Both the position numbers and the translations under genes were made by a program. This document shows positions 18,977 to 62,186 of a DNA stretch of 64,000 nt, piece after piece. The stretch spans positions 1 to 64,000 of the IMG/VR virus record IMGVR_UViG_3300032562_000014. One strand, written 5' to 3'. This DNA comes from a virus. Within the stretch, counting starts at the first letter, position 1. Each line of letters starts with the position of its first letter. The notes below the pieces were generated by a model. It saw only the letters and a list, made by a program, of their open reading frames with translations, searched no databases and had not been told where the DNA came from.

Positions 18977-21900
18977 ATGCGTTTTTTGAGAAGGCTTTTT
19001 CTGTTCATTTTTGCCTTGATTCTGATAGGCATTTGCTCCCGGTCTTTCGGACAGCAGGTATTTCCAATAGGTAATCCAACAGCCATAAACAGGGCACTCG
19101 GAGAGTATGCTGCGGATAGCGCACTGAAAGCGCCAAAGGTAAAAAAAGTGTTTCCTAACTTTGATAGTACGGGGAATATTGCTGTAGTAGGAGGTATTTT
19201 GTATTACCATGACGGCAACCACTGGGCGGCAGTAGATACAGGTGCAGGAACTGGTGTAACTTTAGTGCAACTTAATGACAGCCTCGCGAACTACCTGAAA
19301 TTGAAGGATAGCACTACTAAGTGGGTCACGATAACACAACTCAATGACAGTTTTGGCACACACCATAGCGCCGACAGCACGGTGTTCTCCACTATTTACC
19401 GCAACGACACAGGAAACAAGGCAATACGCGCCATTGTCATTGATCTCATTCAAAGCTACGGTATAGCCATTACAGGAGCGGCAGGGCAGACTGTAGGCTC
19501 TTCCCCTGGCTGGGTAATATCAACAGATACTACGAAGATACCTCCCTTTACTGATACGTTGCCCGGCAACAGGAAGCTGGTTACGCCTACTTATCTTGCG
19601 GCACAGGGATATGGCACCGGTACGGTAACATCAGTAACAGCCAACCCATTATCTCCTCTGTTTACGACATCAGTAGCTACGGCAACAACTACTCCGGCAA
19701 TATCCTTCACGCTTAATACTCAATCTGCAAACCTTGTATTTGCTGGGCCATCTTCCGGTGGTGCTGCGGCCCCGACATTTCGATCATTGGTGTCACCTGA
19801 TATTCCTTCACTCACTGGTGGGCAAGTAGGCATATCGGGTTTATCTGCGACAGGCACTCCTTCGTCTACTACATTTCTTCGTGGGGATAATACATGGTCT
19901 GCTGCCGGTACAGGCACGGTGACCTCTGTGGGCTTATCCACGCCATCCATATTTTCAGTTACGCCCACTCCGATAACTACGGCTGGTACATTTTCTGTTA
20001 CGGCGGTACCTGAAACGGCTAATACCTTTTGGGGTGCGCCAAATGGCAGTACTGGTCAGCCAACATTTCGCACATTGGTATCTGCCGATCTTCCCGGAGG
20101 TACGGGTACGGTAACATCAATAGCCACAACAAGCCCTTTGACCGGCGGGACAATTACTACTACAGGAACTTTGGGAATCACCCAGGCCAGCACAATAAAC
20201 AGTGGGTATCTTTCTTCTGTAGACTGGAATACTTTCAATGGGAAACTTTCATCGGCAGTTACCAGCGTGGGGTTGTCTACTCCTTCTATATTCTCTGTTT
20301 CGCCAACATCTATTACTTCAACTGGTGTGTTTACGGTTACTGCTGTGTCGGAAACGGCGAACACCGTATGGGCGGCTCCTAATGGTAGTTCAGGCCAGCC
20401 AACATTCAGGGCATTAGTTGCGGCGGATCTTCCGGCAGGAACCGGTACTGTTACATCAGTATCAAATAGTGATGGAACCTTAACCGTTACCCCTACAACA
20501 GGTGCTGTAGTTGCTTCAATAAACCTTACCAATGCTAATACATGGGGAGGTTTACAAACATTTCATGGTATAAAGTTAACTGACGGAAGTAATATAGATT
20601 GTGGCTCTACAACAGGCACTATTATAGCTACCGACCCTACACATAAACTTGGGTTTTATAACACCACTCCGGTGGTGCAGCAAACGGGGGATATTAGAAC
20701 GGGATTAAGTAATCTTGGTTTAATAACATTGGGTACTTTGAGTGCATCCAGCATTACAGGCACGTTAGGCACAGGTAACGGCGGTACAGGAGCGACTACG
20801 CAAACGAGTGTAAATACTATTTCTATAACTTACGGGGCAAATAATACAATTACAGCAGCCCCATCAGGCTCCGCAGGTGGCGACCTCACAGGAACATACC
20901 CAAATCCTACACTTGCAGCGGCGGGAACGGCGGGAACTTACGGGAGTGCCACACAAACACCTGTTTTTACTACAGATAGTAAAGGAAGGGTAACAGCGGT
21001 AACTAATACGACCATTACGCCTGCTTATGCGAATGTGACGGGAACGCCTGTTATTTCACTTACGGTAAATGGCGTTACGGGCAATAACAATACAGCAATA
21101 ACGGTGAACCCTATACCTACAGGAGTATCAGCGGGGACTTGTACTTATTGCACTATTACACACAATATATATGGCGAGGCTACGGCTTATAGTAACGGCA
21201 CAAACCCTGTTACCTCCATAGTGGCAGGCACGAATGTAACCACATCAGGCACTACGGTAGTAACCGTAAATGTACCATCTATACCTTATTCAAGTGTAAC
21301 AGGTACTCCTGTAATAAGTGCAACTGTTAATGGTGTGACTGTGAATAACAATACAGCAGTAACAGTAAATGCTACACCGTCTGGCAATGCAGGCGGCAGC
21401 TTAACTGGAACGTACCCTAATCCAACTATTGCGGCAAGCGGGGTGACAGCTGCGGCTTATGGAGGAGCAAATTCAATACCAATAGTTACAGTAGGAACAG
21501 ACGGAAGAGTAACTTCAGTAACTACTGTAAACCCATATTCTACAGGAGGAACTGTAACAAGTGTAGGTTTGACAACTCCTTCTATATTTTCTGTGACGCC
21601 TACTCCTATAACCACTTCTGGGACGTTTAGTGTAACCGCTGTGCCTGAATCAGCAAACACTTTTTGGGCTGCGCCAAACGGCAGCAGTGGTCAGCCAACA
21701 TTTAGAACAATAGGAACAGCAGATGTACCAACGCTGAATCAGTCAACAACTGGATCAGCTGGAAGTCTTTCTCCTGGTGCAAATATAAATGGGGTGTCTT
21801 TTACAGGCTCATCAAATATAACAGTTACAGCCGCAGCAAATACGCTAACAACAGCAACATTAAACCCTACAGTTGTTACATCTTCGTTAACTTCAGTAGG

Positions 21901-24900
21901 AACAATAACAAGCGGTATTTGGAATGGTACAACAATTGCTCAATCAAGCGGAGGAACAGGGGCGACAACTCAAACTTCTGTTAATACAACTCCAATAACA
22001 TATGGGGCGAATAATACAATAACAGCTGTGCCTTCTGGTAATGCTGGTGGAGACTTGACTGGGACATACCCTAATCCCACATTAGCAGCAACAGGAACAT
22101 CTGGAACATATGGAGGGAGCAACGCTATACCAATCGTTACGACGGATTCAAAGGGAAGAATAACTTCAATCACAACAGTCAACCCAGTTTCTGCGCCAGT
22201 TTCTTCAGTTTCAAATTCAGATGGAACATTGACTATATCACCCACAACAGGATCAGTAGTTGGATCGTTGAATTTAGCTAACGCAGACACATGGACAGCA
22301 TTACAGACTTTCAACAAAGGCATTGTTTTTCCTTCTTTAAATGTAACACCAGCAACTCCAACAACAGGAAATACCGTATTTACAAATAGTGTAAATGTTT
22401 TGACCTCGTTAAACAACAACGGCTTTCAAACAGGATTAGACTTTACGGGCAATACAGCCAATAGAATATATACAGGAGCAAATCATAATTTCACATTTGA
22501 TAATTTAAGCACAAGCACAACTACAACAAATGGCTATTTTAAAGGTTCTGGCGGTTTAGGAACATTTGTAACTTCAATACCAAATGGCGATTTAGCAAAC
22601 AGTTCAATAACAATAAACGGAACATCAACTTCTTTGGGCGGAAGCGTTTTGACAGGAACGGTCAATGCGGTTTCAATCGCATCAGCAAACGGCTTTGGAG
22701 GCACTTCTTCAGGTGGTGCAACACCTGCTTTAACGATAACAACTTCTATTAATGGATTGATGGAAGGAAATGGAACAGCAGCAGTCATAGCAACAAGCAC
22801 AAACGTTTTGTCTGCTTTAGGAACACAACCGAATCATACATTCTTAGGCAACAATACAGGTTCAGCAGCTTCAGTGGGATTTTACCAGCCAGCTTATACA
22901 GACATATCTGGAACACCAACAATTCAAACAACAATAAATGGGACAATTGTAGCAAATGCAACACCCGTTACAGTTAACCCAATACCAGCAGGAACAGCAG
23001 GAACGTATGGCTCTGCCACACAAACCCCTGTATTCACCACTAATAGTTACGGGGAAGTTACTGGCGTTACTAATACTACGATCACCCCTGCTTACGCCAA
23101 CGTGACAGGAACGCCGGTTATTCAGACTACCATCAATGGTACCGTAGTCGCTAATGGTGTACCTGTTACGGTGAATCCTGTACCCACTGCTGTTACTCCT
23201 GGAACTTATACGAATACAAACCTTACAGTAAATGCGGCGGGCCAGATCACAGCAGCAAGTAACGGAGCCGCAGGCGGGGTTACATCAGTGATCGCCGGTA
23301 CGAACGTGAGCGTGACCGGAACGAGCACGCCGACCGTAAGTGTTACCAACTATCCTTATAGCGGGTTGTCTGGCGCTCCGGTGATCCAGGTTACTATTAA
23401 TGGCACTACGGTAGCTAATGGCACCGTAGTAACAGTTAACCCCAATCCCACAGCCGTAACTGCAGGCAGTTATACATATTCCAACATAACTGTTGGTGCA
23501 GACGGCAGGCTTACGGCTGCAAGTAATGGTACAGCTCCAACGACTTATACAGCAGGTACAGGATTGAGCGGCACAACATCCTTCAGCATCACGCCTGTGA
23601 CAACTTCTGGTACTTACACAAACGCTACAGTAACAGTAAACGCGCTGGGACAAATTATCGGGGCGGCCAGCGGGTCAGCTCCGATAACTTATACAGGCGG
23701 CCAGAATATCTCTATTACTTCCGGCACCGTAAACCTATCAGGCACAATACCTGTTTCTAACGGTGGGACCGGGGTGACCACCACAACGAGTGTTAACGGT
23801 ACTCCAATATCCTACGGAGTTGGGAATACGCTGCCTATTGGAGTTACTTCTATTGTGGCCGGGACGAATGTAACGACCACAGGTACAACAACTGTAACTG
23901 TAAATGTACCGTCTATACCATATGGCAGCGTAACCGGTACACCTGTAATATCTGCTACCGTGAATGGTGTTACTGTAAATAACAATACGGGTGTAACCAT
24001 TACAGCGGCTCCTACAGGCTCCGCAGGTGGTGATCTTGCAGGCACATATCCTAACCCAACTGTAGCTACTGCCGCTATTACAGGAACTAAGATAGCGAGT
24101 GCGACCGTCACCAATGGTAACCTTGTGAACAATACTGTATCAGTCAACGGAACGCCCGTTGCCTTAGGCGCGGGGATTACTATAACTGCAGCGCCGAGTG
24201 GGAGTGCGGGAGGCGACCTCACAGGAACATATCCTAACCCTACATTAGCAGCAACAGCGGTAACAGCGGCAAGCTACGGCAGCAGTACGGCTATTCCGTC
24301 ATTCACGGTAGATGCTAAGGGTAGATTGACAGCAGCCAGTACTAATGCGGTCATTGCACCTGCGGGTACTTTATCGGGTACTACACTTAACAGCGGCGTG
24401 GTGTCAAGTTCTTTGACAAGTGTAGGAACTATAACAGCGGGTACGTGGAATGGAACGGCTATTGCTAATGCTTATCTCGCCAATAGCACCGTAAGTGTAA
24501 ACGGCACACCTGTAGCACTCGGAGCGGGAATAACAGTTACAGCGGCTCCGAGCGGCGCAGCAGGCGGCGACCTTACCGGTACATACCCTAACCCGACCAT
24601 CGGCGCAGGTAAAGTAACCAATACCGACCTTGCAGGTAGCATAGCTGCCAGCAAATTGATAGGTACAGACATTGCAACTGTAGGTACAATAACCACAGGT
24701 ACATGGAACGGAACGGCTATTGCTAATGCGAACCTTGCTAATAGTAGCTTGACGGTTAACGGCAGCAGCGTTTCTTTGGGTGGGAGCGTAACGGTGAGCG
24801 CAGCCCCGAATGGTAGTGCGGGTGGTAGCCTTACAGGTACTTATCCTAACCCGACCATAGCGAGTAGCGTTTCTTTGCCCGGCAGCCCGACCACTACAAC

Positions 24901-25255
24901 GCAGGCTATAGACGACAACAGCACCAATATTGCCACGACTGCTTATGTGCAACTTTACATACCCGCAGATACAAGCATATCGGCATCCTACACACTTACA
25001 TCAAGGGACAGATACAGGACATTGCACAGCACCGCATCGAGCGGAATTACTTTGACTATACCAACCTCATTAGGTACGAAATTCACATGCACAGTTATTG
25101 AAGAGGCGGCGGGTAATGTAACCTTTTCAGCAAGTTCTACAACACTAACATTTATACCCACATCAACGACTAAGACAAAGCAAAGCGGCTCTATTGCCAC
25201 GGTGCGGAGTTGGGCTACAGCAAACAGTTTCACAGTTCAAGGGGATTTACAATAA
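18977..25255 (+). CDS. Giant repetitive fibre-like protein with N-terminal signal peptide
   Basis: 2092 residues. Residues 1-27 look like a Sec signal peptide: MRFLRR, a hydrophobic core LFLFIFALILIGI and a cleavage-like SFGQQ. The rest is Gly/Thr/Ser-rich repeats with two main modules: GGDLTGTYPNPT, seven times with variants, and VTSVGLSTPSIFSVTPTPIT followed by GQPTFRTL. These are patterns of tail-fibre shafts in Bacteroidota phages and prophages. The C-terminus (about 1985-2092, from AIDDNSTNIATTAYVQ on) is a compact beta domain. A Sec signal on a fibre-like protein is unexpected because tails assemble in the cytoplasm. It is the first gene of a three-gene secreted module. Confidence 0.7.
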   Translation: MRFLRRLFLFIFALILIGICSRSFGQQVFPIGNPTAINRALGEYAADSALKAPKVKKVFPNFDSTGNIAVVGGILYYHDGNHWAAVDTGAGTGVTLVQLNDSLANYLKLKDSTTKWVTITQLNDSFGTHHSADSTVFSTIYRNDTGNKAIRAIVIDLIQSYGIAITGAAGQTVGSSPGWVISTDTTKIPPFTDTLPGNRKLVTPTYLAAQGYGTGTVTSVTANPLSPLFTTSVATATTTPAISFTLNTQSANLVFAGPSSGGAAAPTFRSLVSPDIPSLTGGQVGISGLSATGTPSSTTFLRGDNTWSAAGTGTVTSVGLSTPSIFSVTPTPITTAGTFSVTAVPETANTFWGAPNGSTGQPTFRTLVSADLPGGTGTVTSIATTSPLTGGTITTTGTLGITQASTINSGYLSSVDWNTFNGKLSSAVTSVGLSTPSIFSVSPTSITSTGVFTVTAVSETANTVWAAPNGSSGQPTFRALVAADLPAGTGTVTSVSNSDGTLTVTPTTGAVVASINLTNANTWGGLQTFHGIKLTDGSNIDCGSTTGTIIATDPTHKLGFYNTTPVVQQTGDIRTGLSNLGLITLGTLSASSITGTLGTGNGGTGATTQTSVNTISITYGANNTITAAPSGSAGGDLTGTYPNPTLAAAGTAGTYGSATQTPVFTTDSKGRVTAVTNTTITPAYANVTGTPVISLTVNGVTGNNNTAITVNPIPTGVSAGTCTYCTITHNIYGEATAYSNGTNPVTSIVAGTNVTTSGTTVVTVNVPSIPYSSVTGTPVISATVNGVTVNNNTAVTVNATPSGNAGGSLTGTYPNPTIAASGVTAAAYGGANSIPIVTVGTDGRVTSVTTVNPYSTGGTVTSVGLTTPSIFSVTPTPITTSGTFSVTAVPESANTFWAAPNGSSGQPTFRTIGTADVPTLNQSTTGSAGSLSPGANINGVSFTGSSNITVTAAANTLTTATLNPTVVTSSLTSVGTITSGIWNGTTIAQSSGGTGATTQTSVNTTPITYGANNTITAVPSGNAGGDLTGTYPNPTLAATGTSGTYGGSNAIPIVTTDSKGRITSITTVNPVSAPVSSVSNSDGTLTISPTTGSVVGSLNLANADTWTALQTFNKGIVFPSLNVTPATPTTGNTVFTNSVNVLTSLNNNGFQTGLDFTGNTANRIYTGANHNFTFDNLSTSTTTTNGYFKGSGGLGTFVTSIPNGDLANSSITINGTSTSLGGSVLTGTVNAVSIASANGFGGTSSGGATPALTITTSINGLMEGNGTAAVIATSTNVLSALGTQPNHTFLGNNTGSAASVGFYQPAYTDISGTPTIQTTINGTIVANATPVTVNPIPAGTAGTYGSATQTPVFTTNSYGEVTGVTNTTITPAYANVTGTPVIQTTINGTVVANGVPVTVNPVPTAVTPGTYTNTNLTVNAAGQITAASNGAAGGVTSVIAGTNVSVTGTSTPTVSVTNYPYSGLSGAPVIQVTINGTTVANGTVVTVNPNPTAVTAGSYTYSNITVGADGRLTAASNGTAPTTYTAGTGLSGTTSFSITPVTTSGTYTNATVTVNALGQIIGAASGSAPITYTGGQNISITSGTVNLSGTIPVSNGGTGVTTTTSVNGTPISYGVGNTLPIGVTSIVAGTNVTTTGTTTVTVNVPSIPYGSVTGTPVISATVNGVTVNNNTGVTITAAPTGSAGGDLAGTYPNPTVATAAITGTKIASATVTNGNLVNNTVSVNGTPVALGAGITITAAPSGSAGGDLTGTYPNPTLAATAVTAASYGSSTAIPSFTVDAKGRLTAASTNAVIAPAGTLSGTTLNSGVVSSSLTSVGTITAGTWNGTAIANAYLANSTVSVNGTPVALGAGITVTAAPSGAAGGDLTGTYPNPTIGAGKVTNTDLAGSIAASKLIGTDIATVGTITTGTWNGTAIANANLANSSLTVNGSSVSLGGSVTVSAAPNGSAGGSLTGTYPNPTIASSVSLPGSPTTTTQAIDDNSTNIATTAYVQLYIPADTSISASYTLTSRDRYRTLHSTASSGITLTIPTSLGTKFTCTVIEEAAGNVTFSASSTTLTFIPTSTTKTKQSGSIATVRSWATANSFTVQGDLQ
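20860..24870 (+). repeat. Degenerate protein-level repeats in the fibre-like gene
   Basis: Seven copies of the GGDLTGTYPNPT-type module occur near 20875, 21385, 22040, 24020, 24205, 24560 and 24815, each followed by a variable beta segment. Codons differ strongly between copies while the peptide is kept, so this is not a recent DNA duplication. The stretch from about 22200 to 22980 is visibly more AT-rich than the flanks. Confidence 0.75.
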
Positions 25256-26275: not shown

Positions 26276-26479
26276 ATGAGTACCGAAAATATACAGCAGA
26301 TAGTAGATATAGCTATGAAGCCAAACGGGCAGACAGCAAACAAGCACATACTTGTCGTTGTGATCGTGTGCATGATACCTACTATCTTATTCGGCATAGA
26401 TAACGGCATTGCCTATAGTGCCATAAAAAAGCCACCCATATACAGGTGGCTTTTCTCATTCAGTGTATTCCGTAATTAG
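26276..26479 (+). CDS. Small single-pass membrane protein, hypothetical
   Basis: 67 residues, with one hydrophobic segment at about 24-42 (HILVVVIVCMIPTILFGID). The last 20 codons run through the terminator hairpin at 26424-26454 and the frame ends 4 bases inside the 3 prime end of the convergent groEL gene. This is possible but odd and lowers confidence. It is co-directional with the secreted module. Confidence 0.4.
   Translation: MSTENIQQIVDIAMKPNGQTANKHILVVVIVCMIPTILFGIDNGIAYSAIKKPPIYRWLFSFSVFRN
26424..26454. terminator. Bidirectional terminator between the secreted module and groEL
   Basis: GCCACC (26431-26436), loop CATATACA, GGTGGC (26445-26450), with an A-run before and TTTT after, so U-tracts follow the hairpin on both strands. 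It separates convergent transcription from 18977 onward and from the chaperonin operon. Confidence 0.85.
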
Positions 26480-28065
26480 CTTTCTGATACCACACATTCT
26501 GTGTTCAATAAAAGCTGCGCTATAGAGGCTGCATTCTCCAGCGCTATCCTGGTTACCTTTACCGGGTCTATAACGCCTGTTTCAAAGAAGTGTTCATACT
26601 CCCTTGTTTTGGAATTGTAGCCATAGTCGCCACCGGTCTTTTTTACTTCATCAATGATAGCGTCTATGTCTTTTACCCCTGCATTTTGTAGTATAAGGCG
26701 AGCCGGTTCGCTTATGGCTTCTTCAACGATAAGTACACCTGTTGCTTCATCTTTATTGGCTACCTCTATCAGTTGGATAGCCTGTATAGCATTCAGGTAA
26801 GCTACACCACCACCGGGCAGCACACCTTCGTCTATGGCCGCGAGTACAGCACACAGGGCATCTTCAATACGATCTCTTTTTTCTTTCACTTCCGGTTCGG
26901 TAACGCCACCTACATAGATAACGCCTATGCCGGATGTGAGTTTTGCAAGCCGGCCAGCCAGTGCCTTCTTTTCGTAGGGTTGCTTGCTTTCGGCCACCAG
27001 TCCTTCGATCATCTTTGCGCGGGCTGCAATGTCAAATTCTTTTCCGCGAGCGCCGGTGATCAGTGTAGATTCCCGGTCAATAACCACCTTATCTGCATAT
27101 CCGAGATAGGATGAAGGTGCATTGACTAAATTGTGGCCCTTGTCGCGGCTGATTAGTGTGCCGTTGGTAATGATGGCAATATCTTCCATGATGTCCTTCG
27201 TGATCAGGCCGTCTTTAGGCATCTTTATCACGCATATAGGGCGCTTCATCTGGGCCACAGTAGCGTTGATGTTTTGCAGGGCTTCTCCGTCCATCTCTTC
27301 GCAGATAATAAGGATAGCCTTTTTGTCATTGAGCGAATACTTGATCAGCGGCTCTACTTCATTCCACTGGCTTATCTTGTTGTCGCACATCAGTATGTTC
27401 ACGTTCTCCAGCACTACTACATCGCTGGTATCGGACTGGCGCATGTACGGGGATATGTAGCCACGATCTATCTTCACGCCTTCTACCTTTTTTACGTAGG
27501 TTTCCCCGGTGAGTGAATCTTCAATGCTCACAAGGCCATGCTCTCCTACCTGGCACACGATGTCGCTCACCAGTTTACCTATTTCGGTATTGTTATTGGC
27601 TGATATGGAAGCGATGTTGATCAACTGCTCCGGGTCGCGGCCTATTATTTTGGCAGCCTTACCCAGTTGTTCTACTACGCATTTAGTGCCCTTTTTTATA
27701 CCTTCTGTGAGATCGGCTGCACTGGCACCTTCATTCAGTTCTTTGATGCCTTTATTGATTAACTGCTGCACAAGGACTATAGACGTTGTGGTGCCATCAC
27801 CTGCGGCCTCTGCGGTATTGGTGGCCACCTCTTTCACAAGCTGTGCGCCCATGTTCTCCAAAGTATCCGGCAACTGGCGTATGCTGCGCGCTACGGTCAC
27901 TCCGTCCTTTGTGAGATACGGCACAGGTCTGTTCGGGTTAAGGCTCTGTATCATCACGGTATTGCCGGATGGCCCCAGTGTGGACTTCACGGCATCTGCC
28001 AGGATGTTGATGCCATTGCTAAGTTTGGTTCTCGCTTCTTTGTCAAAATCTACTCTTGTACTCAT
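26476..28065 (-). CDS. groL: GroEL-type chaperonin (HSP60)
   Basis: 529 residues, full length. The ATP-binding motif GDGTTTS is at 89-95, TKDGVTVAR at 52-60, ENMGAQLVKEVA at 70-81 and PGGGVAYL near 410, with the usual equatorial C-terminal GVIDPVKVTRIALENAASIA. The bacterial Gly-Gly-Met tail is absent (ends CVVSES). It should form a double ring that folds phage proteins. Phage-borne GroEL is rare but known in a few large phages. It is 32 bp downstream of the multi-domain GroES-like gene in one operon on the minus strand, opposite to the surrounding structural genes, and is controlled by the operator-bearing promoter at 29798-29844. Confidence 0.96.
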   Translation of the reverse strand: MSTRVDFDKEARTKLSNGINILADAVKSTLGPSGNTVMIQSLNPNRPVPYLTKDGVTVARSIRQLPDTLENMGAQLVKEVATNTAEAAGDGTTTSIVLVQQLINKGIKELNEGASAADLTEGIKKGTKCVVEQLGKAAKIIGRDPEQLINIASISANNNTEIGKLVSDIVCQVGEHGLVSIEDSLTGETYVKKVEGVKIDRGYISPYMRQSDTSDVVVLENVNILMCDNKISQWNEVEPLIKYSLNDKKAILIICEEMDGEALQNINATVAQMKRPICVIKMPKDGLITKDIMEDIAIITNGTLISRDKGHNLVNAPSSYLGYADKVVIDRESTLITGARGKEFDIAARAKMIEGLVAESKQPYEKKALAGRLAKLTSGIGVIYVGGVTEPEVKEKRDRIEDALCAVLAAIDEGVLPGGGVAYLNAIQAIQLIEVANKDEATGVLIVEEAISEPARLILQNAGVKDIDAIIDEVKKTGGDYGYNSKTREYEHFFETGVIDPVKVTRIALENAASIAQLLLNTECVVSES

Positions 28066-28097: not shown

Positions 28098-29768
28098 TTA
28101 CGCAATAGTGGTTTCTGCGGGTATGGTGGCATACAGGTCGCCCCGGCGCATAAACAGGTATTCTTCACCTTCTATCTTTATAGAGGTGCCGGCCAGTTTC
28201 TTGTACAGTACGGTATCTCCTTCATTGATGTCGGTGACAAGTTCTCCTTTGGAGATAATGGTTCCCTTCTGTGGCTTTTCTTCGCCCTGTATTTTGATGA
28301 ACATATCATCTGCCTGTTCCGGTATTGGTTTTACAAAAACAAGGTTGCCCAGTGGTTTTACTTGGTTCATTTCGTTTATTTTAGCTGTGATAAAATCTGA
28401 GTGAGCGATAAGGTATTTCTTACCGAAAAGGTTGATGGGGTATAGTTCTTTGTAGGACGCGAGGCATATATTCGGTAACTGCTTTGGGAACTCTATCTTG
28501 CAGCGCATCAGGTGGTTGCGGTTTAGCCCGGCACTCTCGGCAATGGCATCTGCTTTCAGGCGCTCCATCTTATTTTCAAAGTCCTGTACTTTGAGTGCAA
28601 ATTCAGGGTCGCTTTTGTCTATGCGCTCCACATCGGCGCGGTAGCCTTCGTACTTAGCCTGAAACTTCTGCACCCGGTCCTTCTTTTTGTGATCAAGTGT
28701 TATGGTGAATGAGCTCAGGTCGCGGCATTTGGATAAGTCGCTGTCAAGGCCGGGAGATAGCAATTCATCATTCTGTCGGTTGCTATGCTCAAAGATGTCA
28801 AATTCAAAATTGAGGAACACGCTTTTATTGAACGGGATTATTTTCATATCCGGTATCTTCCCGTACAATTTACGGTTCTCTATTTTGCCGAATATCTCGC
28901 GGGCATTAGGGTCAAGGCAGTTGATGATGCGGTGTTCTTCTATGTAGTTATCAAAGCTACCCTCAAACCTGCGGAGTATGCGGTATGGCTGTGACTCTAT
29001 GGAGTGGTGAAGGATGGCCATGTCGCCCACATTCAGCAATGGATACATCTTCTGCGCCTCACTACCAATATCCACCACCTCGCCATACTGCAGGTTGCGC
29101 AACATGTGAATATATAAAGGTGACTGCACAAAACCGCTGTCTGTAGTTTCGCGCTTGATCTTCTGTGCGGCCAGGTCTATAGATACAATGATACGATGTG
29201 GTGATACTAAGCCATTGACTGTAAATACGTCCTTCTCGTAGAGTATGTGGTACGTCTTATCTCCTTCGCGAAATGAAGGGTATATGGCCACCTTTACTTC
29301 TTTGCGAAATTCAATGATGGCGCCCGATTTGAAATAAGACCCTGCCGGGGCCTTGTATATGATTGCTTTGCGCGGAGTGCCTTCGGTATCATCAGCGATT
29401 ACCAACCCATCTTTGGTTACATGGCTCTGGGTGACAATTTCTACAAACAGGCGGTTGTATGGTTCTCCATTGACGCGCCATACTTCATCTTCAAACACTA
29501 CCGGATGCTCCACGCCGTATATCTCTATAGACCTGTATGATCCTGTATCTTGCTGGGTGCGCTTGTATAAGATGTTGTCCCCTTTTTTAAAAGAAGACCC
29601 TTCACAAGTGTATAAAACCACACCACGCGCGCATAGGTTGTTGATGTCGTCCGGCGCTATAAGCCCATCACCCAGGTCTTCGGCGGATGTGTTTGGCTCA
29701 ACGATCAGTGTCTTGTAAATAGTCCCTGTGCTATGCACATAGGGGAGTGGCTGGTAGGTGGCGCTCAT
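28098..29768 (-). CDS. Giant multi-domain GroES-like co-chaperonin
   Basis: 556 residues, about six times the size of GroES. The C-terminal domain (467-550) is a clear GroES fold: MNQVKPLGNLVFVKPI, EKPQKGTIISKGEL, INEGDTVLYKKLAGTSIKI. Related, more diverged domains lie at about 17-100 (ARGVVLYTCEGSSFKKGDNILYK), 103-198 (PRKAIIYKAPAGSYFKSGAIIEF) and 218-285 (YGEVVDIG, LLNVGDMAILHH). A fifth, less certain one (308-330 plus 418-465) appears interrupted by a charged coiled coil at 358-412. It presumably caps the GroEL encoded immediately downstream. A seven-domain ring could be formed by fewer chains. Domain number above three is an inference. Confidence 0.8.
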   Translation of the reverse strand: MSATYQPLPYVHSTGTIYKTLIVEPNTSAEDLGDGLIAPDDINNLCARGVVLYTCEGSSFKKGDNILYKRTQQDTGSYRSIEIYGVEHPVVFEDEVWRVNGEPYNRLFVEIVTQSHVTKDGLVIADDTEGTPRKAIIYKAPAGSYFKSGAIIEFRKEVKVAIYPSFREGDKTYHILYEKDVFTVNGLVSPHRIIVSIDLAAQKIKRETTDSGFVQSPLYIHMLRNLQYGEVVDIGSEAQKMYPLLNVGDMAILHHSIESQPYRILRRFEGSFDNYIEEHRIINCLDPNAREIFGKIENRKLYGKIPDMKIIPFNKSVFLNFEFDIFEHSNRQNDELLSPGLDSDLSKCRDLSSFTITLDHKKKDRVQKFQAKYEGYRADVERIDKSDPEFALKVQDFENKMERLKADAIAESAGLNRNHLMRCKIEFPKQLPNICLASYKELYPINLFGKKYLIAHSDFITAKINEMNQVKPLGNLVFVKPIPEQADDMFIKIQGEEKPQKGTIISKGELVTDINEGDTVLYKKLAGTSIKIEGEEYLFMRRGDLYATIPAETTIA

Positions 29769-29797: not shown

Positions 29798-29844
29798 TAC
29801 CTGTGTACAGGTATAAAAGTACGTCTTCTTATGACATTAGCAAA
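29798..29844 (-). promoter_or_regulatory. Chaperonin operon promoter with palindromic operator
   Basis: On the minus strand TTTG (29844-29841), 19 bases, TACTTTTA (29821-29814), then directly the palindrome TACCTGT-AC-ACAGGTA (29813-29798) covering the expected start site. The same block of about 33 bases recurs at 34613-34645. The remaining gap up to 29892 is AT-rich and holds no clear rightward promoter for the gene at 29893. Confidence 0.75.
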
Positions 29845-48924: not shown

Positions 48925-49071
48925 ATGCACAAACAGCAACAATACATTCCGCAGGAATTAATTGATGATCTTTGGGATGACAATAATAAAGAACCTACAT
49001 TCATAAAAAGGATACTTAAAAAAGTAAAGGAATGCCTGATAAGAAAAAGGAAATATCCCTCCAAGACATAG
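48925..49071 (+). CDS. Small ORF overlapping the start of the 2316-residue gene
   Basis: 48 residues (MHKQQQYIPQELIDDLWDDNN...IRKRKYPSKT), acidic start and basic end. It starts 8 bases behind the upstream stop and runs 40 bases into the giant gene in another frame. It would fill the otherwise empty 114-base gap and could couple translation of the giant gene. Evidence is position only. Confidence 0.4.
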   Translation: MHKQQQYIPQELIDDLWDDNNKEPTFIKRILKKVKECLIRKRKYPSKT

Positions 49072-52000
49072 CGGCAGATATTAATGATAGCGATACCACA
49101 TCTGCTTCTGATGTGGAGAGCGCTTTAGGCAAGTATGTATCTGGTAATGCTAAATCATACGCAGTATCGCAATTAATACATGAAACAGGGAACCCGGAAT
49201 TAGACAGTGAGGTTTCAAGAAATAACAATAACTACAGCGGGATTACATGGAATAAAAACTTCCCAGATGAATGGAAGGGTACTCCAAGGCCGGATTCGGA
49301 AGGCGGTAATTACGTTAAATTCCCTACAGTAGACGACTGGGCAAGAGAGCACGCGAAATTATTAAAAAAAGATAAAGGCGCTGGTGCTCCAGCCGATGCG
49401 ACCTCAATAGAAGATTACGCTCATAGGTTGAAGGTTAATGGGTATTACAAGGACCCAGAGTCGGTATATGCTAAAAGCCTGAAAAGAATACAGGCACAAA
49501 GAGGAGAAAAAAACATAGCTGATGTAGCGGCGGACATCAATGATGATAGCGCTCCCGATGCCACACAACCAGCGCCGGCGGCTCCCGTTGCGCAGCAGAC
49601 CCCTCAACAAATAACCAATAGCGTATTTGGGACTCAGCTTGACGGCTCACCAATAGCAGGTGCAACACAAGTACCAGTCGCACCTACCGTTCCTGCACAG
49701 CCTGCCGCGCCGGCCAATAGCTGGGAAAACACAACAGGGCTAATATCAGATACTCCCGCGCCAGCAGGTGTATCTCAAGGAGTAAACGGTAATGCTAATA
49801 ACAGCAATCCAGCACCTGTTGCACCTCAATTATCACAGCAGGAAATACTCAATAAGACATTAGGTACGCAACTAAACGGTGTGCCAATAGCTACTGCGCC
49901 AGTAGAGAAAACTGCGCCAGAAAAGACGCAGGATGCGGTAGATTTCTTAGCCAAGGATGCCCTCCAATCAGGTGCAGTGCAACCCACAACAGATGCAGCC
50001 CACCCGGACAACGAATTAAACCAGTTAACCAATCCGCATGGCGACCCTGCTTACATAGCTAACTACAAGAATAACAGAATGAAGGCTATTAATACGGAAT
50101 ATCAGCAGCAGCTTTATGAACTACAGACAGACCCTGCAAGAAGTACAGATTTCAAGGAAAAGCAGGCTTTGGATGCGCAATTTGCCCAGAAGAAAAAAGA
50201 TTTGGAAGAAAATGCCGGGCATATAATAGGGCTGCAATTATTCAACCAGGAGTACGGCCAAAATAAGCCCATGGGGGCTACTGCCAATACAGCTACCGAT
50301 GCCATCCGTGGACGATATGAAAAAGATGCTAAGGGTATAGATAATCAGATAGCTGCAACCTATAAATCAGAGGCCCCTAACGGATCAGAGGCGGTTGAAT
50401 TGAGGAAGCAGTTGAATACTCAAAAGTTGGCCCTTACCACGCAGTATGATGCGGATATATCAAGAACAAAAGCTGGTGTAAAATATAATCCTATACAGTT
50501 GGGCGCAAAATACGCCGCTGCCATGGGTGATGAAACAGCAAAGGAAGACTTGAATAAATTGGAGCATGGACAGCCTATTGCTCCATCCAATCAGTATAAA
50601 TACAACCTGAGAGGTAACAGGATAATACAGGACGGTACCGACAATGCAGTTAACGAAAAAGCAAAGGAAGAAGGTGAGGCACATGCAGACCGTAGCGGCG
50701 ATCAGTTGTTTGAAAATAACAAGCCCTTCATTGTAAAAAATGCAGCAGATGTTGTGGCCAACGCAAAAGAGCAAGACCGCAACCCTATATCGAGTTTTCT
50801 TAGTTTCGTTACTCCGTCAAAAGTGATGCCCAACATCACGCGAGAGGAAATAGATAAGTATGGCCAGCAGGAAGGCATACCCGAAAATGCGCTGAATGAA
50901 CTTCGGCAAAACCCAAATTTAATCCCTAAGCCGGCCAGCGGGTTAGAATACCTCGCAAAGGGCGCATTGAATACCGCTGCCCCGATATTCCAGCGCTTAG
51001 TGTATCCGGCAATACAGGGTGTTGTAGGCGGCGAAGACCCTAACCAGCGCTTCCATTCAGGATGGGAGAATGAAAGTGGCCTCGGCGCCGCTATAGTAGG
51101 CAATACGCCAAGTTCGCAGAACTCATGGAGTAATATCCGTGGCGTAGGCAATCAGATGATGGAAACCATCGGTAACCTGGGGGTATTCGGCGGAGAAGTC
51201 GGCGGATTGGCAAAAGGCGGCGAGGCTTTAGGATTAGGTGAAAAGGCTTCTGAGAAACTTGCCAACTTCGGTGTTATGGCCTTCGATGGGTACAATGATG
51301 CGTACAATAAATCACTCGACATATTTGGCGACAAGCCAGAGGATGAAGGCAAGCGAAAACTGTATTCCACCGTTAACGGACTGATCACCGGCGCATTATT
51401 TTCTATCAGCCCTAAAGCGCAGATTGTAAAAAATGCGCTGGGCATGGAAAGCAAGAGTGCGGAAAGCCTGATAAAAGAAATACAGGCAAACAATGGCATG
51501 GAATTTCTGCAGACAAAGACCGGTAAAGAAGCGCTTGCATCAACGGTGCAGGAATTTGGTAAAGAGTACGGTGCGCAAATAAGTTTAGCCACCGCACAGA
51601 AAATATCAGAGGGCATAGTAGATGGTATTGCCGCGCCAGAAAGAAAGCAAAACATGCCGGGGGATGTGATGGATGCGGCTGGCGGTACGGCTATATCTAT
51701 GCTCCTGCCGTCTATTCTCGGTTCTTTGGGTCATACAACCCACGAGGCATCCTTAAATGCGGGGGCTATGTTTGAAATGGGTACTCATCCAGATCAATAT
51801 ATCTCTACTATAAGCAAGCAGTTACAAGATGGCAAGATAAGCCCGCAACAGGCCCAGGCTTCACATGATGCAATCCTTACCATGAAAAATGTGGTAAGCA
51901 ATACGCCTACAGAAAATAGCATAGGTGAGCAGCTTACACCCAACCAGGTTAAAGATTATTCTTACAGCCTGTTTCAGGAAAACATGCTCCAGAAGAAAAT

Positions 52001-55000
52001 CAAATCATTGGAAGATGGTGCAAAGATGGCAGGATTAGAAGTTGACCAGGCGCAACTTGCCCCGCTTAAAAAGAGAATATCGGAAGTGCAGAAAACGCGC
52101 GTAGATATTCTGTCTAAACCTGTGCCGAAGCCTGTAATTGTTCCGGACAAAGCCACAGAAGAAAAGCCCAATAGCGAACCGAACCCTGAACGGAGCGTCG
52201 CCAACCAAGCTGACCAGAGCGATGCGGCTGGCAACCAAGAAAAAAATAATGCCGAAAATGTAAATATTTCAGAAGAACCCATACCTTTATCTCCTGATAA
52301 TGCTATAGATAATAGTTTAACCCCAAAAACAACCAAAAATGAAAAAGACAGCAATGGGCCCGAAATCGGCCATGGGCAAGAAAGCGCTTCCATCGGGCGG
52401 AATGAAGGCGAAGGCCAAAGTGAAGACAATGCCAACAGTGAAGGGCGGAATGAAGCCGGGCGGCAAGATCGGGAACTAACCGAAACACCACCTACAGGAC
52501 AGGACGAGAGCGCTCAGGAACAGCCCGTTGTAAAACAGTCTGAAAGCGCCTCCTCCGGTTCTGAAACACCAGCAAAAAAGCCCCGGCAGAAGAAAGTATA
52601 TAAAGGGGATGCCGATACAATACCCGTAGTAGTAAATCCCGGTGTCGGTACGCAGGATCTCGGCCAAGCCAAAGGCAAGCCCGAAGAACACACCGCAGAA
52701 GCCATAAAGGAAGCTACCATAGAGCATCCCGATAAACCGGCAGATGTACTCGTTGCAGACCACCCGGAAGGAGAAAGTTTCAACGAAGCGAAAGACCGTT
52801 TCCATTCAGCAGTAGAAAGTATAGCCAAAGATGCGCCCGACAATTCAGTTGTGGTGACACACTCATGGGGCTTAAAACTGCTGGAAGCTGCACATAAAGT
52901 AGGGTGGGATCATCCAAACATAGCCGAAGAACACCAGAACGGTAGCACCGAGCCTGGCGACCTTGTTCCTTACAAAACAGAGGACGGGAAAATTATATGG
53001 TTTGCACGTCACGGAGAAACGGCAGACAACGAAAAAGACCTGCAGCGCACCAATGATACCAAGCTAACCGATAAGGGCCGCGAACAGGCTGCAAACATCG
53101 CAGCAGAGTTAAAAAAAAATGGCGTTACCCCTTCTCAAATAATTAGCAGTGACCTGCCGCGCGCAAAAGAAACAGCGGATATTATCTCCAAAGAATTTCC
53201 GAAAGAAAAACCTACCGAAGATGCCACTAAAATCAACGAGCAGCCACAGCAAGAAAGCGATAAACAAAGTGGTGAGCCAGAACATGCACGAATTGAGCCA
53301 AAAAGGGAGCAAGCCCCGCAGCCAGAAGCAAAAAATAGCGATAGCAATCAGCGCAGCCAAGCGCCGCAAGTAAAACCAAAACGTAAGGGTAGAAAAGGAT
53401 GGAGTCTTTCTGCGCAACTTAAAAGGCGCAGCGATGTATTATCTAATGAACCAAGGACTATAGAAGAGCACATCCTTCATACCATGCTTGCCATGGACGA
53501 TAAACATCCAGAAGATAAGTGGCGCTTCAAAGACGTTGAAAGGGACTTACCTAAAAATGCAAGAAACAGGGATGGAGCCAGTGCAGAAACAAAACGCATA
53601 GCCAAGCAATTTACCAGTGTTGATTCTAACATGGGTATTGATGAGTGGGCAGATGCCTTACATCGCGAAATAGAAGATGGTCACCATCCATTCGGGCTGA
53701 ATGGAATGGACAGTAAGGATATTGGGGATATGGTTAAAAGCCTTGTATCTCAATTCCCATCAAAAACCAATCTGTTGGAACATCTTGAAAACCTACATAA
53801 AGATGTAGAACCGGAAGACTTGTCTGACGAAGAGAAAGAATATAATGCCTCACATCAATTAGCCGAAGCAACACCGGAAAGAATAGAGGCATTAGGTAAG
53901 TCAAAATCAGAACTGGAGGAGCATTTGCATAATGAAATAGCCGATAAAAAAATAAGCGAATCGGATATATCTGCAATGGATAATTACCTATCTCACCTCC
54001 CTGTAGATGAATCTGGCATAACTAATCTTTCAAGCGTAGACCCTTTTTCAGATGAATACCAGAATATGATGAAAAACCTATCTCACGATGGGCAAGTATT
54101 TGTAAATAGGCTATTATTTGAAAGCGTTGCCGAGGATAAGGATGTTCCCAAAATAATAAAAGAAAAAGCACAACAAAATATAGAAAAAAATGAAAAACAA
54201 TCAGAACAACAACCTGTCGCATCTGCCGAAGGACATTCAGGAGATGAGCCCGAAAAGCCGGGTGAAAACGATGTTACACGCGCTGGTGACAGCGCGTATG
54301 GTGAACGGCCAGGTGTCGGAGAACGAGAAGAAGCAGCGCCAAAAGTTGCAGAACCAATCAAGCGAACCCCTGAGTTAGCCCTTAAAAGACATCAAGCACA
54401 CGAAAAGGCTGTAGGTGAACTTAATGATCTGCGTGATGAAAGATCAGAGATAGAGCAGCATTTATCAACAGAAGAAGCGAAGTCGCGCCCCAATATGGAT
54501 AAGCGAGCTGAACTGGAGCGGCAGCTTGATGCCAAAGACAAAGAGATTGCCGATAAGGTAAAAGAAGTAGACCGCAGAAAGCGTGAATTGGATATACAAC
54601 TTTCACATGAAAAAGGGGCTAAGAAAATTACCGATTTTATAGAAAAACAGCGCAAGGCAAATAAAGGTATGATGCTATCCTCTCCCGTACCCGGGGAAGT
54701 ATTTTACTCTATAATGGGTCATTTTGCCAAACTGTACAAAGAACTGGGCAATGTGAGGATAGCTGCGCTGCGTGCTGTAGAATGGGCAAAGGACCACTTC
54801 AAAAACGAAGAAGGCATAGAGAAATTGAACGCCAGGCATATTGAAGATGCCAGTAAGCATATTGCTACCCCGCTGGAGCATGAACCACTGATAAGAGATA
54901 AAGACGATTTAGAGTCTATAAGGGCTACTGTGCGCGAGATACAGGAAGGGGATGTTACAAAAGAAGAAGCTCATCAGGAAATAGATGAATCCCCGATAAG

Positions 55001-55982
55001 TGATAAAGCAAAAGCCAACCTTCATAATTACATAGACTGGCATACCGGAGGCGATACCGAAACGCAGGAGGAAGAACGCAGGGAAAGTAACAACAACACC
55101 CTCAATGATAAGAACTGGATAGACGAACACCAGTTAAGTCACTCTGGTGGTATCACCGAGTATATTTCTCATAAAACAGAGAAGGACATATACGGCGATG
55201 AAGCAGTAAAGTCAGCGCAAAAAGAATACGAGGCTACTAAGATATTTGAGGACCTGTCGCGCACCGGCCATGACTTGTTCAACCAGGCGCAAAAGAAATA
55301 TGCACCCAATGGTGAGCCGTTATCAGAGTGGGGAGGTAAATTCCTTGCAGACCTGAATAATGCAGACCTGCGCGGTAAAGATGCAGGAGCAAAGAAAGTG
55401 GTTGGCCTGGCTACGATGGCTGGTGAATTGCAGGGGGAAAGTAAAAGGCTGGAAATGGAGATGGCCGCAGAAAAAGATGTTGCTAAGAGAAACGACCTGT
55501 CTAACCAGAAGGCAAAGACCGATGAATTGCTGGGTAAAGTACAGAAATCACAAACGGACCTACTGCATGAAGCATCGCTTACGCTTAATGCCCGTAGAAT
55601 ATCCCGCATATTCAGGAACACACACCTGTACGAACTATATGAGAAAGCAATCCTGTCGGACAAGCAGCGCAAGGCAAAGGATAACATCAATGAAGCGCTG
55701 GACACAGGTAAAGTAGCCGACAAGGATATAGCGCCCGGCATAGCCCCTGCTGCAAAGCCCGAGAAGGAAGCACTGAAAGAAGAGGCGAAGGCATCAGAGG
55801 CGCGTAAAGCAAAAGAAAGTGATCAGCCTAAGAAAAAAGGCATCATCAAGCGCATAAAAGAGGCTGCAACCAAAGGTAAGAAAGCCAGTAAGGAAGAGAT
55901 AAGAAAAAACATCTTATCCAAAGAAGAAAAGGCTGCGCTGTTGAATGATATTCTCAAAGAGCAAAAGAAGACAAAATGCTAA
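49032..55982 (+). CDS. Giant ejection/polyvalent virion protein with GH73 and histidine-phosphatase-like domains
   Basis: 2316 residues. Residues 35-155 are a glucosaminidase (GH73)-like domain: SQLIHETGNPEL with Glu51, then NNNNYSGITW (64-73), EGGNYVKFPTVDDWAREHA and a closing GYYKDPESVYAKSL. Two repeats of GTQL(D/N)G.PIA follow at about 205 and 285. After a low-complexity linker, residues 1205-1395 carry the parts of a histidine phosphatase in swapped order: LGQAKGKP, HPEGESF (1244-1250), VVTHSWG (His1277) and then FARHGETADNE (Arg1326-His1327-Gly1328), LTDKGREQAANIA, SSDLPRAKETADII. The rest is charged helix. T7 gp16 similarly has a wall-degrading N-terminus. It probably enters the host. 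Confidence 0.7.
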   Translation: MPDKKKEISLQDIAADINDSDTTSASDVESALGKYVSGNAKSYAVSQLIHETGNPELDSEVSRNNNNYSGITWNKNFPDEWKGTPRPDSEGGNYVKFPTVDDWAREHAKLLKKDKGAGAPADATSIEDYAHRLKVNGYYKDPESVYAKSLKRIQAQRGEKNIADVAADINDDSAPDATQPAPAAPVAQQTPQQITNSVFGTQLDGSPIAGATQVPVAPTVPAQPAAPANSWENTTGLISDTPAPAGVSQGVNGNANNSNPAPVAPQLSQQEILNKTLGTQLNGVPIATAPVEKTAPEKTQDAVDFLAKDALQSGAVQPTTDAAHPDNELNQLTNPHGDPAYIANYKNNRMKAINTEYQQQLYELQTDPARSTDFKEKQALDAQFAQKKKDLEENAGHIIGLQLFNQEYGQNKPMGATANTATDAIRGRYEKDAKGIDNQIAATYKSEAPNGSEAVELRKQLNTQKLALTTQYDADISRTKAGVKYNPIQLGAKYAAAMGDETAKEDLNKLEHGQPIAPSNQYKYNLRGNRIIQDGTDNAVNEKAKEEGEAHADRSGDQLFENNKPFIVKNAADVVANAKEQDRNPISSFLSFVTPSKVMPNITREEIDKYGQQEGIPENALNELRQNPNLIPKPASGLEYLAKGALNTAAPIFQRLVYPAIQGVVGGEDPNQRFHSGWENESGLGAAIVGNTPSSQNSWSNIRGVGNQMMETIGNLGVFGGEVGGLAKGGEALGLGEKASEKLANFGVMAFDGYNDAYNKSLDIFGDKPEDEGKRKLYSTVNGLITGALFSISPKAQIVKNALGMESKSAESLIKEIQANNGMEFLQTKTGKEALASTVQEFGKEYGAQISLATAQKISEGIVDGIAAPERKQNMPGDVMDAAGGTAISMLLPSILGSLGHTTHEASLNAGAMFEMGTHPDQYISTISKQLQDGKISPQQAQASHDAILTMKNVVSNTPTENSIGEQLTPNQVKDYSYSLFQENMLQKKIKSLEDGAKMAGLEVDQAQLAPLKKRISEVQKTRVDILSKPVPKPVIVPDKATEEKPNSEPNPERSVANQADQSDAAGNQEKNNAENVNISEEPIPLSPDNAIDNSLTPKTTKNEKDSNGPEIGHGQESASIGRNEGEGQSEDNANSEGRNEAGRQDRELTETPPTGQDESAQEQPVVKQSESASSGSETPAKKPRQKKVYKGDADTIPVVVNPGVGTQDLGQAKGKPEEHTAEAIKEATIEHPDKPADVLVADHPEGESFNEAKDRFHSAVESIAKDAPDNSVVVTHSWGLKLLEAAHKVGWDHPNIAEEHQNGSTEPGDLVPYKTEDGKIIWFARHGETADNEKDLQRTNDTKLTDKGREQAANIAAELKKNGVTPSQIISSDLPRAKETADIISKEFPKEKPTEDATKINEQPQQESDKQSGEPEHARIEPKREQAPQPEAKNSDSNQRSQAPQVKPKRKGRKGWSLSAQLKRRSDVLSNEPRTIEEHILHTMLAMDDKHPEDKWRFKDVERDLPKNARNRDGASAETKRIAKQFTSVDSNMGIDEWADALHREIEDGHHPFGLNGMDSKDIGDMVKSLVSQFPSKTNLLEHLENLHKDVEPEDLSDEEKEYNASHQLAEATPERIEALGKSKSELEEHLHNEIADKKISESDISAMDNYLSHLPVDESGITNLSSVDPFSDEYQNMMKNLSHDGQVFVNRLLFESVAEDKDVPKIIKEKAQQNIEKNEKQSEQQPVASAEGHSGDEPEKPGENDVTRAGDSAYGERPGVGEREEAAPKVAEPIKRTPELALKRHQAHEKAVGELNDLRDERSEIEQHLSTEEAKSRPNMDKRAELERQLDAKDKEIADKVKEVDRRKRELDIQLSHEKGAKKITDFIEKQRKANKGMMLSSPVPGEVFYSIMGHFAKLYKELGNVRIAALRAVEWAKDHFKNEEGIEKLNARHIEDASKHIATPLEHEPLIRDKDDLESIRATVREIQEGDVTKEEAHQEIDESPISDKAKANLHNYIDWHTGGDTETQEEERRESNNNTLNDKNWIDEHQLSHSGGITEYISHKTEKDIYGDEAVKSAQKEYEATKIFEDLSRTGHDLFNQAQKKYAPNGEPLSEWGGKFLADLNNADLRGKDAGAKKVVGLATMAGELQGESKRLEMEMAAEKDVAKRNDLSNQKAKTDELLGKVQKSQTDLLHEASLTLNARRISRIFRNTHLYELYEKAILSDKQRKAKDNINEALDTGKVADKDIAPGIAPAAKPEKEALKEEAKASEARKAKESDQPKKKGIIKRIKEAATKGKKASKEEIRKNILSKEEKAALLNDILKEQKKTKC

Positions 55983-60000: not shown

Positions 60001-60022
60001 TGGAAACAAGTGGAATAATACA

Positions 60023-60202
60023 ATGGGCCGACCACGAGAAGAAGATTCTGAATTATTTGATGTACGTATTAAAGTTATGGGAGAAGACGCTCTTACCATA
60101 AGGAAGTACGTAGAGGATAAGAAGAAGAAGGATCGCCGCAAAACGATTATCAATACTGTAGAGGCAATACTGCTGGAAGCAGCCGAACAGCACAAAAAAT
60201 AA
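60023..60202 (+). CDS. Small RHH/Arc-like DNA-binding protein
   Basis: 59 residues (MGRPREEDSELFDVRIKVMGEDALTIRKYVEDKK...). A beta-strand candidate (LFDVRIKV), then two helices (ALTIRKYVEDKKKKDR and KTIINTVEAILLEAAEQ) fit a ribbon-helix-helix protein, with many Lys/Arg. It sits right behind a full-consensus promoter and ahead of the terminase cluster, so it may regulate that operon. The antisense ORF over it is a shadow. Confidence 0.5.
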   Translation: MGRPREEDSELFDVRIKVMGEDALTIRKYVEDKKKKDRRKTIINTVEAILLEAAEQHKK

Positions 60203-60218
60203 TAGAAAACAGGAAAGC

Positions 60219-60881: not shown

Positions 60882-60913
60882 TTATTTTTTCACACAATAA
60901 AACGACAACAATC

Positions 60914-62127: not shown

Positions 62128-62186
62128 AAGGGGAGGTCGGCGAAGAATCTGAAAACAGGTCACGTAGAGGGTGTAATTGAATAACT

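What the first reader, a model, noticed from the sequence alone, without database searches (positions are those of the whole stretch)
26476..28065. Phage-borne full-length GroEL in a self-contained chaperonin operon
A complete GroEL with intact ATPase residues is encoded just downstream of its own co-chaperonin, on the strand opposite to the structural genes, with its own promoter and a bidirectional terminator. The tail ends CVVSES, not GGM-like. Most GroEL-dependent phages recruit host GroEL and at most encode a gp31-like GroES. Encoding both subunits, with an extra-large cap, points to a client that the host chamber cannot fold.
Basis: partly seen in the sequence, partly recalled or inferred. 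Interest (0 to 1): 0.78.

Follow-up and report, generated by a model that had tools for sequence, protein, structure and literature searches.

The report
Phage chaperonin with multi-domain lid
This phage carries its own protein-folding chamber, which many phages of related hosts also do, but its lid appears to be one long protein holding at least three and perhaps five copies of the usual single lid unit, which is unusual and can be tested.

Summary
The GroEL gene is real: 26476-28065 (-), 529 aa, full length, ATPase residues kept. Phage GroEL is not new: 264 of 50,697 phage records hold a match, including Bacteroides, Flavobacterium and Cellulophaga phages. It is not a recent host capture: best identity is 46%, on a long branch.

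The unusual part is the gene just upstream, 28098-29768 (-), 556 aa: a chain of GroES-like modules. Three are supported (residues ~15-101, ~102-187, 467-549), one is suggestive (~188-302), and one is weak and split by a partly helical insert (~303-465). In 141 distinct viral GroEL loci outside the window, the longest GroES-like frame is 206 aa.

Phages near it by terminase (phi38:1, elemo, Panino) carry GroEL, a single GroES, and a separate ~190-aa two-module GroES upstream of the terminase; 64 of 80 viral terminase relatives hold that gene. The window's record has no other GroES-like frame, so its co-chaperonins may have merged.

Best reading: a phage-specific GroEL closed by a covalently linked, Cpn20-like lid, probably two chains per ring. 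Stoichiometry, and a 'client the host cannot fold', are inferences. New variant of a known kind.

The parts
26476..28065 (-). groEL gene, 529 aa
28098..29768 (-). multi-module co-chaperonin gene, 556 aa, upstream of groEL; coding-like throughout (in-frame score positive in 14 of 14 windows, best of the frames compared in 13)
29466..29726 (-). module D1 (residues ~15-101), GroES-like; self-repeat with D2
   Evidence: self-BLAST E 1.6e-7; hhalign 79.7%, score 31.4 vs best of 60 shuffles 19.1; no Pfam hit on its own
29208..29465 (-). module D2 (residues ~102-187), GroES-like
   Evidence: PF00166 4.6e-4 in own record, below Pfam cut-off; hhalign 91.3%; fold resemblance to GroES in a low-confidence model
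28863..29207 (-). module D3 (residues ~188-302), suggestive GroES-like, with the GD..HH signature of the tandem phage GroES N-domain
   Evidence: hhalign 40%, score 25.8 vs best of 60 shuffles 17.7; tandem N model 5.1 bits vs best of 1000 shuffles 4.3; against: 1 of 40 shuffles as high with the tandem N alignment, 2.9 bits vs best of 500 shuffles 7.4 with the single-GroES model
28374..28862 (-). D4 (residues ~303-465), tentative split GroES-like module
   Evidence: only 21 C-terminal columns match, score 18.6 vs best of 60 shuffles 16.3; -0.2 bits
28461..28733 (-). insert within D4 (residues ~346-436), partly helical
   Evidence: approximate; helix 390-412 in a very low-confidence single-sequence model and reading of the alignments
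28119..28370 (-). module D5 (residues ~467-550), clear GroES domain
   Evidence: PF00166 alone 45.1 bits vs cut-off 21.1; hhalign 99.4%
26425..26456 (-). hairpin with U tract, probable terminator of the operon

Best explanation
The operon makes a phage-specific group I chaperonin. The GroEL chain (529 aa) forms the ATP-driven ring. The 556-aa protein is its lid: several GroES-like modules joined head to tail in one polypeptide, at least three and probably four or five. The modules present hydrophobic loops (GLIA in D1, GLVI in D2, GFVQ in D3, MFI in D5, read from sequence) to the GroEL apical domains. Because GroEL rings are seven-fold and the lid comes in blocks, I expect two chains per ring with some sites or modules unpaired, as proposed for plant Cpn20 and engineered GroES concatamers. 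The lid most likely arose by duplication and fusion of the two kinds of GroES that related phages keep apart: the short one near groEL and the two-module one upstream of the terminase. Shown: gene structure, the D1/D2 repeat, D5 and D2 homology to GroES, no other GroES-like frame in the record. Inferred: that the lid works on this GroEL, the stoichiometry, the fusion origin, and service to phage structural proteins.
For: GroEL keeps its ATP site. In its own record PF00166 hits only the cap, twice (D5 1.2e-12, D2 4.6e-4), and of 566 open frames of 50 aa or more (60001-64000 counted twice) only the cap matches GroES or tandem-GroES models. D1 and D2 are repeats. Against a GroES alignment with no window sequence, each of D1-D5 scores above all 60 of its shuffles, D4 barely. 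A model matches GroES with its D2 part in Foldseek rows 1-13 and VIA rows 1-13, Z 5.5-4.2. Panino, phi38:1 and elemo have GroEL plus separate single and tandem GroES; 64 of 80 viral terminase relatives hold the tandem gene, the window's record does not. Precedents: Cpn20 has two tandem domains, and six- to eight-domain concatamers work with GroEL (review PMC5780408, passages).
Against: No full-length relative of the cap was found, so nothing shows conservation of the multi-module form. D2 on its own is below Pfam's cut-off (18.9 vs 21.1 bits) and D1 has no Pfam hit; with a single-GroES HMM D1 and D2 reach 9.3 bits each against a best of 7.4 in 500 shuffles, while D3 (2.9) and D4 (-0.2) do not exceed shuffles, and over 566 frames the D1 and D2 domain E-values are 0.034. 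The D1-D2 model has mean pLDDT 42.9, D1 about 31, and its alignment was made of GroES-like proteins, which biases it; no Foldseek match reached E 0.001, and VIA Z under 8 may mean only a common arrangement. The GroEL groove that would hold the lid loops has changed: E. coli YYFLLLVV is YYMEILNA here, which could weaken classical lid binding; for the window alone this is not clearly more than its general divergence (p 0.078).
Confidence: 0.53

Rival explanations
1. Only D5 works as a GroES and forms an ordinary seven-fold ring of seven chains; the N-terminal modules hang outward as old duplicates now used as an adaptor that captures or positions a phage protein, for example capsid, portal or terminase.
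For: D5 is by far the best preserved module (99.4% against 91.3% down to 3.5%); D4 carries a long insert; tandem GroES genes lie upstream of the terminase in 64 of 80 viral relatives, hinting at a link to head assembly.
Against: D1-D3 keep G-hydrophobic loop motifs at the GroES mobile-loop position (read); seven chains of 556 aa would crowd the dome (inference).
Confidence: 0.26
2. The GroEL no longer uses an encapsulating lid in the classical way, like Pseudomonas phage EL chaperonin, and the cap acts separately, for instance on host GroEL.
For: Groove changes L234E, V263N, V264A, F204M; pooled over four clade GroELs, groove hydrophobic losses 10 of 32 vs 86 of 524 elsewhere (gaps counted as losses), p 0.034; phage EL chaperonin does not bind E. 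coli GroES (PMC7185714, abstract and passages); of 36 terminase-relative records searched, 30 have a PF00166 match at E<=1 (13 over cut-off) but 2 have GroEL; records may be fragments.
Against: Cap and GroEL genes lie 32 bases apart on one strand; p 0.078 for the window alone; Panino, elemo and phi38:1, with changed grooves, still keep a single-module GroES gene.
Confidence: 0.12
3. Recent, unselected capture of a host groESL operon.
For: GroEL falls among Bacteroidota GroELs in the tree, without strong support.
Against: Best identity 46%, while 29 hosts average 75.8% to the Chitinophaga GroEL; end branch 2.44; GC3 within the range of the window's other genes; remodelled cap.
Confidence: 0.02
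4. The 556-aa frame is an assembly or frameshift artefact joining separate genes.
For: No second copy of the full gene is available.
Against: One open frame; in-frame coding score positive in 14 of 14 windows, best of the frames compared in 13.
Confidence: 0.03

Closest known systems
Tandem GroES upstream of the terminase (phrog_13932; Cellulophaga phi38:1 gp089, phi19:3 gp101, Maribacter Panino, Flavobacterium elemo)
   Same: GroES-like modules joined in one chain, in phages of the same terminase group; its C-terminal module matches D5 and its N-terminal GD..HH motif resembles D3
   Different: 180-200 aa, two modules, upstream of TerL (adjacent, or one gene away in phi19:3); here 556 aa, three to five modules, upstream of groEL
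Chloroplast/apicoplast Cpn20
   Same: Head-to-tail GroES modules acting on a seven-fold chaperonin
   Different: Two modules, eukaryotic plastid; here at least three (PMC5780408, passages)
Engineered GroES concatamers of six to eight domains
   Same: Covalently linked GroES domains capping a heptamer
   Different: Laboratory constructs; this would be a natural one (described in PMC5780408, passages; the original paper was not seen)
T4 gp31
   Same: Phage-encoded GroES counterpart, for capsid protein folding
   Different: Single module, heptamer, works with host GroEL (PMC6318259, passages)
Phage EL chaperonin gp146 and Bacteroidota phage GroELs (SJC03, immuto, phi40:1)
   Same: Phage-encoded GroEL
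   Different: EL does not bind E. coli GroES; SJC03, immuto and phi40:1 have a single 87-101 aa GroES near groEL; phi40:1 also has the tandem gene

Membership tests
Group I chaperonin (GroEL, PF00118) | Full-length family match over curated cut-off | tested here: met
   193.2 bits vs 34.3, residues 22-528
Group I chaperonin (GroEL, PF00118) | ATP/Mg residues incl. D87, D398 | tested here: met
   15 positions listed, 14 identical, I493V
Group I chaperonin (GroEL, PF00118) | Hydrophobic apical groove for substrate and GroES loop (8 positions, recalled) | tested here: inconclusive
   5 of 8 large hydrophobics kept; L234E, V263N, V264A; 74 of 87 GroELs keep 8
Group I chaperonin (GroEL, PF00118) | Heptameric (double-)ring assembly | not testable with these tools
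   needs protein
GroES/Cpn10 (PF00166) | Domain match over curated cut-off | tested here: met
   63.3 bits whole protein; D5 alone 45.1 vs 21.1
GroES/Cpn10 (PF00166) | Single ~10-kDa module per chain | tested here: not met
   556 aa, more than one module
Cpn20-type co-chaperonin | Exactly two tandem GroES modules | tested here: not met
   D1, D2 and D5 supported, D3 suggestive
phrog_13932 tandem GroES | Two modules, ~190 aa, upstream of TerL | tested here: not met
   556 aa at 28-30 kb; TerL starts at 62669, its 161-aa upstream neighbour has no PHROG match and no frame there matches tandem or single GroES models
phrog_13932 tandem GroES | Sequence homology | tested here: met
   E 1.3e-13 with a model of 27 tandem proteins, almost all of it from D5; phrog_13932 4e-4

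The most novel reading that the evidence does not exclude
A natural GroES concatamer: one phage polypeptide supplies three to five non-identical lid modules, so the seven-fold chaperonin is closed by a lid whose modules are fixed in order. This breaks the ring's symmetry and could let single modules (such as D4 with its helical insert) specialise in holding or shaping a phage client, on a GroEL whose groove has changed alongside.
Probability: 0.4. Interest if true: 0.75.

Novelty: new variant of a known kind. Interest (0 to 1): 0.5.

Why it matters
How a lid with the wrong number of modules fits a seven-fold chaperonin is a question raised by plant Cpn20 and studied with engineered concatamers (PMC5780408, passages). 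A phage protein with three to five linked, diverged modules beside its own GroEL would be a natural test case, and would suggest phages merging co-chaperonins that relatives keep as separate genes.

Tried and rejected
Recent host capture: rejected (46% best identity). Chance repeat: rejected for D1/D2.

Whole-cap AlphaFold from one sequence failed (mean pLDDT 31.9). The D1-D2 model gave moderate confidence only in parts of D2. hhalign rows against a failed file (n2.a2m) are void and were redone; the valid rows include results against D3 (1 of 40 shuffles as high with the tandem N alignment) and D4 (3 of 40 with the tandem C alignment).

Search for full-length cap relatives, all negative: viral contigs peptide scans, genome contigs, phages (12 records, all within residues 456-549), plasmids (147 records, the 15 listed all C-terminal), 395 and 294 Bacteroidota genomes (2 and 1 chance-like hits with stops), 19 records, 36 terminase relatives (5 hits, residues 462-549 only). 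Close TerL relatives by single-protein scan: none. The peptide scans need exact 8-mers, and records very near the window may be left out by the tools.

Groove change as proof of co-evolution: not accepted, p 0.078 for the window alone.

The two sets give 159 loci, 18 of them the same stretch twice, so 141 distinct. Tree and residue tables used 47 of the 80 loci and 30 of the 80.

After this check I lowered the best-explanation confidence from 0.55 to 0.53 and raised the D5-only rival from 0.25 to 0.26.

Full report
The finding concerns a GroEL gene at 26476-28065 on the minus strand of a 72,644-base virus record. The gene is there: 529 codons, PF00118 E 9.6e-57 and PHROG GroEL E 1.6e-135. ATP-site residues are kept, including D87 and D398 (roles recalled). 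A 13-bp hairpin with a U run follows it. A dedicated promoter is not shown.

Phage GroEL is ordinary. A tblastn search found matches in 264 of 50,697 phage records, 208 of them over at least 80% of the query. They include Bacteroides SJC03, Flavobacterium immuto and elemo, and Cellulophaga phi40:1. Some records in that collection are bacterial contigs, such as two from Salmonella. Soil and marine viral chaperonins are in print (PMC8390657, passages; it cites a marine study, PMC5649160, which is not held). In elemo the GroEL/GroES pair also stands on the strand opposite its neighbours in the 5-kb flanks shown. A missing GGM tail is shared with phi40:1, elemo and a terminase relative.

It is not a recent capture. 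The nearest of the sequences compared reach 46.2% (viral L010) and 45.6% (Bacteroidota host), while 29 hosts average 75.8% to the Chitinophaga GroEL. In a quick tree of 87 rows it sits on an end branch of 2.44, and no starred set of up to half the rows holds it. GC3 is 0.52 for GroEL and 0.55 for the cap, within the 0.30-0.62 of 14 other genes of the window.

The surprising part is the upstream gene, 28098-29768, 556 aa. Pfam finds GroES at 470-549. BLAST of its pieces against the protein finds that 15-101 repeats at 101-186, E 1.6e-7. Searched in its own record, PF00166 hits this gene twice and nothing else (1.2e-12 and 4.6e-4; the second is below the curated cut-off). Against a GroES alignment without window sequences, hhalign gives D1 (10-105) 79.7%, D2 (100-190) 91.3%, D3 (186-302) 40.2%, D4 (300-466) 3.5%, D5 (466-556) 99.4%; each scores above the best of 60 shuffles of itself, though D4 only barely and over 21 columns. 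With a single-GroES HMM, D1 and D2 reach 9.3 bits each, above the best of 500 shuffles (7.4), but D3 (2.9) and D4 (-0.2) do not. A model of the N half of tandem GroES gives D3 5.1 bits against a best of 4.3 in 1000 shuffles, while hhalign with that half alignment is reached by 1 of 40 shuffles. So three modules are supported, a fourth is suggestive, a fifth is tentative. The whole frame looks coding (14 of 14 windows).

A model of residues 1-190 built on 29 tandem GroES rows has mean pLDDT 42.9, with 72-76 only over residues 131-150. Its matches are GroES/Cpn10 in Foldseek rows 1-13 (best E 0.016, none below 0.001) and in VIA rows 1-13, which include T4 gp31 (Z 5.5-4.2, mostly residues 103-186); row 14 (Z 4.1) is a chain of entry 7ekq, whose chain R is Cpn20, and the next rows are oxidoreductases, Z 3.9. 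The tool warns that Z under 8 may mean only a common arrangement. The alignment rows were GroES-like themselves, so this supports D2 but is not independent, and it says nothing on D1.

Context. The large terminase is nearest to Cellulophaga, Flavobacterium elemo and Maribacter Panino phages, at 24.7-29.2% over 49-74% of the query in the rows listed. Upstream of the terminase in phi38:1, elemo and Panino (adjacent) and phi19:3 (one gene away) stands a 180-200-aa protein annotated as GroES. It has two GroES-like halves: in a single-GroES search of 27 distinct tandem proteins, 18 hits fell in N halves and 28 in C halves, and in four near-identical terminase relatives PF00166 hits the same 202-aa frame twice, weakly. 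Of the 80 viral terminase loci, 64 hold this tandem gene and 16 do not; with the four named phages that is 68 of 84. It is adjacent to the terminase in 7 of the 64, 262-499 bases away in 47 and 1.0-1.3 kb in 10. Panino, phi38:1 and elemo also have GroEL and a separate 84-93-aa GroES frame; phi19:3 has both GroES kinds but no GroEL match; a paper names GroEL and GroES homologs in Panino (PMC11590407, one passage). The window's phage has none of these separately: of 566 open frames only the cap matches single or tandem GroES models, and the 161-aa neighbour of its terminase has no PHROG match. The simplest account is that duplication and fusion put the lid modules into one chain.

In 141 distinct viral GroEL loci outside the window, 87 hold a GroES-like frame in the flank held; of 88 frames the longest is 206 aa (L345, two modules). 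The listed GroES frames of Bacteroidota genomes are 95-155 aa (293 of 296 genomes match; the list was cut). Papers: no natural chain of more than two GroES modules appeared in the listings of the searches, nor in the passages read; these cover open-licence papers only.

The GroEL groove. At eight positions that bind substrate and the GroES loop in E. coli (recalled), the window reads YYMEILNA where E. coli and Chitinophaga read YYFLLLVV; phi40:1 YRFALLVE, elemo YGFLVMYA, Panino YIFEVLAM, sharing L234E with the window. In 47 other viral GroELs only 7 of 376 such cells lose a large hydrophobic, but these were picked for similarity. For the window alone the loss is 3 of 8 against 16 of 131 other hydrophobic sites (p 0.078); pooled over window, phi40:1, elemo and Panino it is 10 of 32 against 86 of 524, gaps counted as losses (p 0.034). 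It is suggestive of a phage-specific interface, no more.

Mechanism. I take the cap as the lid of this GroEL: modules linked in one chain, loops GLIA, GLVI, GFVQ and MFI offered to the apical domains, and probably two chains per seven-fold ring with some sites or modules left over. Cpn20 (two modules) and engineered six- to eight-domain concatamers show that such mismatch is tolerated (PMC5780408, passages). The main rival is that only D5 caps and the rest is an adaptor.

Noticed in passing
window 49032-55982 (+): A 2316-aa protein, perhaps a tape-measure or injected virion protein (guess), has a histidine-phosphatase domain (PF00300, E 1.7e-22, best stretch from residue 1322) and weak lysis-type PHROG matches near its N-terminus.
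   Followed up: no
L009 6493-9478 (record 66493-69478, beyond the window): Near the record's end a transposase-like gene is followed by what reads by eye as a C5 cytosine methyltransferase and a phospholipase-D-type nuclease, perhaps a mobile restriction-modification unit; no family search was run.
   Followed up: no
window 18977-25255 (+): A 2092-aa protein with a signal-like N-terminus is built of many Thr/Ser/Gly-rich repeats.
   Followed up: no
window 29798-29813: An inverted repeat TACCTGT-AC-ACAGGTA lies about 30 bases upstream of the cap start; it could be an operator.
   Followed up: no
window 26276-26479 (+): A 67-aa frame on the + strand runs through the operon's terminator hairpin and ends inside the groEL stop region.
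   Followed up: no
loci L174-L257: A tandem two-module GroES gene upstream of the large terminase occurs in 64 of 80 viral terminase relatives and 4 named phages; of 36 such records searched, 2 held a GroEL. Its role near the terminase is unexplained.
   Followed up: partly
L345 8609-9226: A 206-aa two-module GroES-like frame in a viral GroEL locus, the longest of 88 GroES-like frames in 141 distinct loci outside the window.
   Followed up: no
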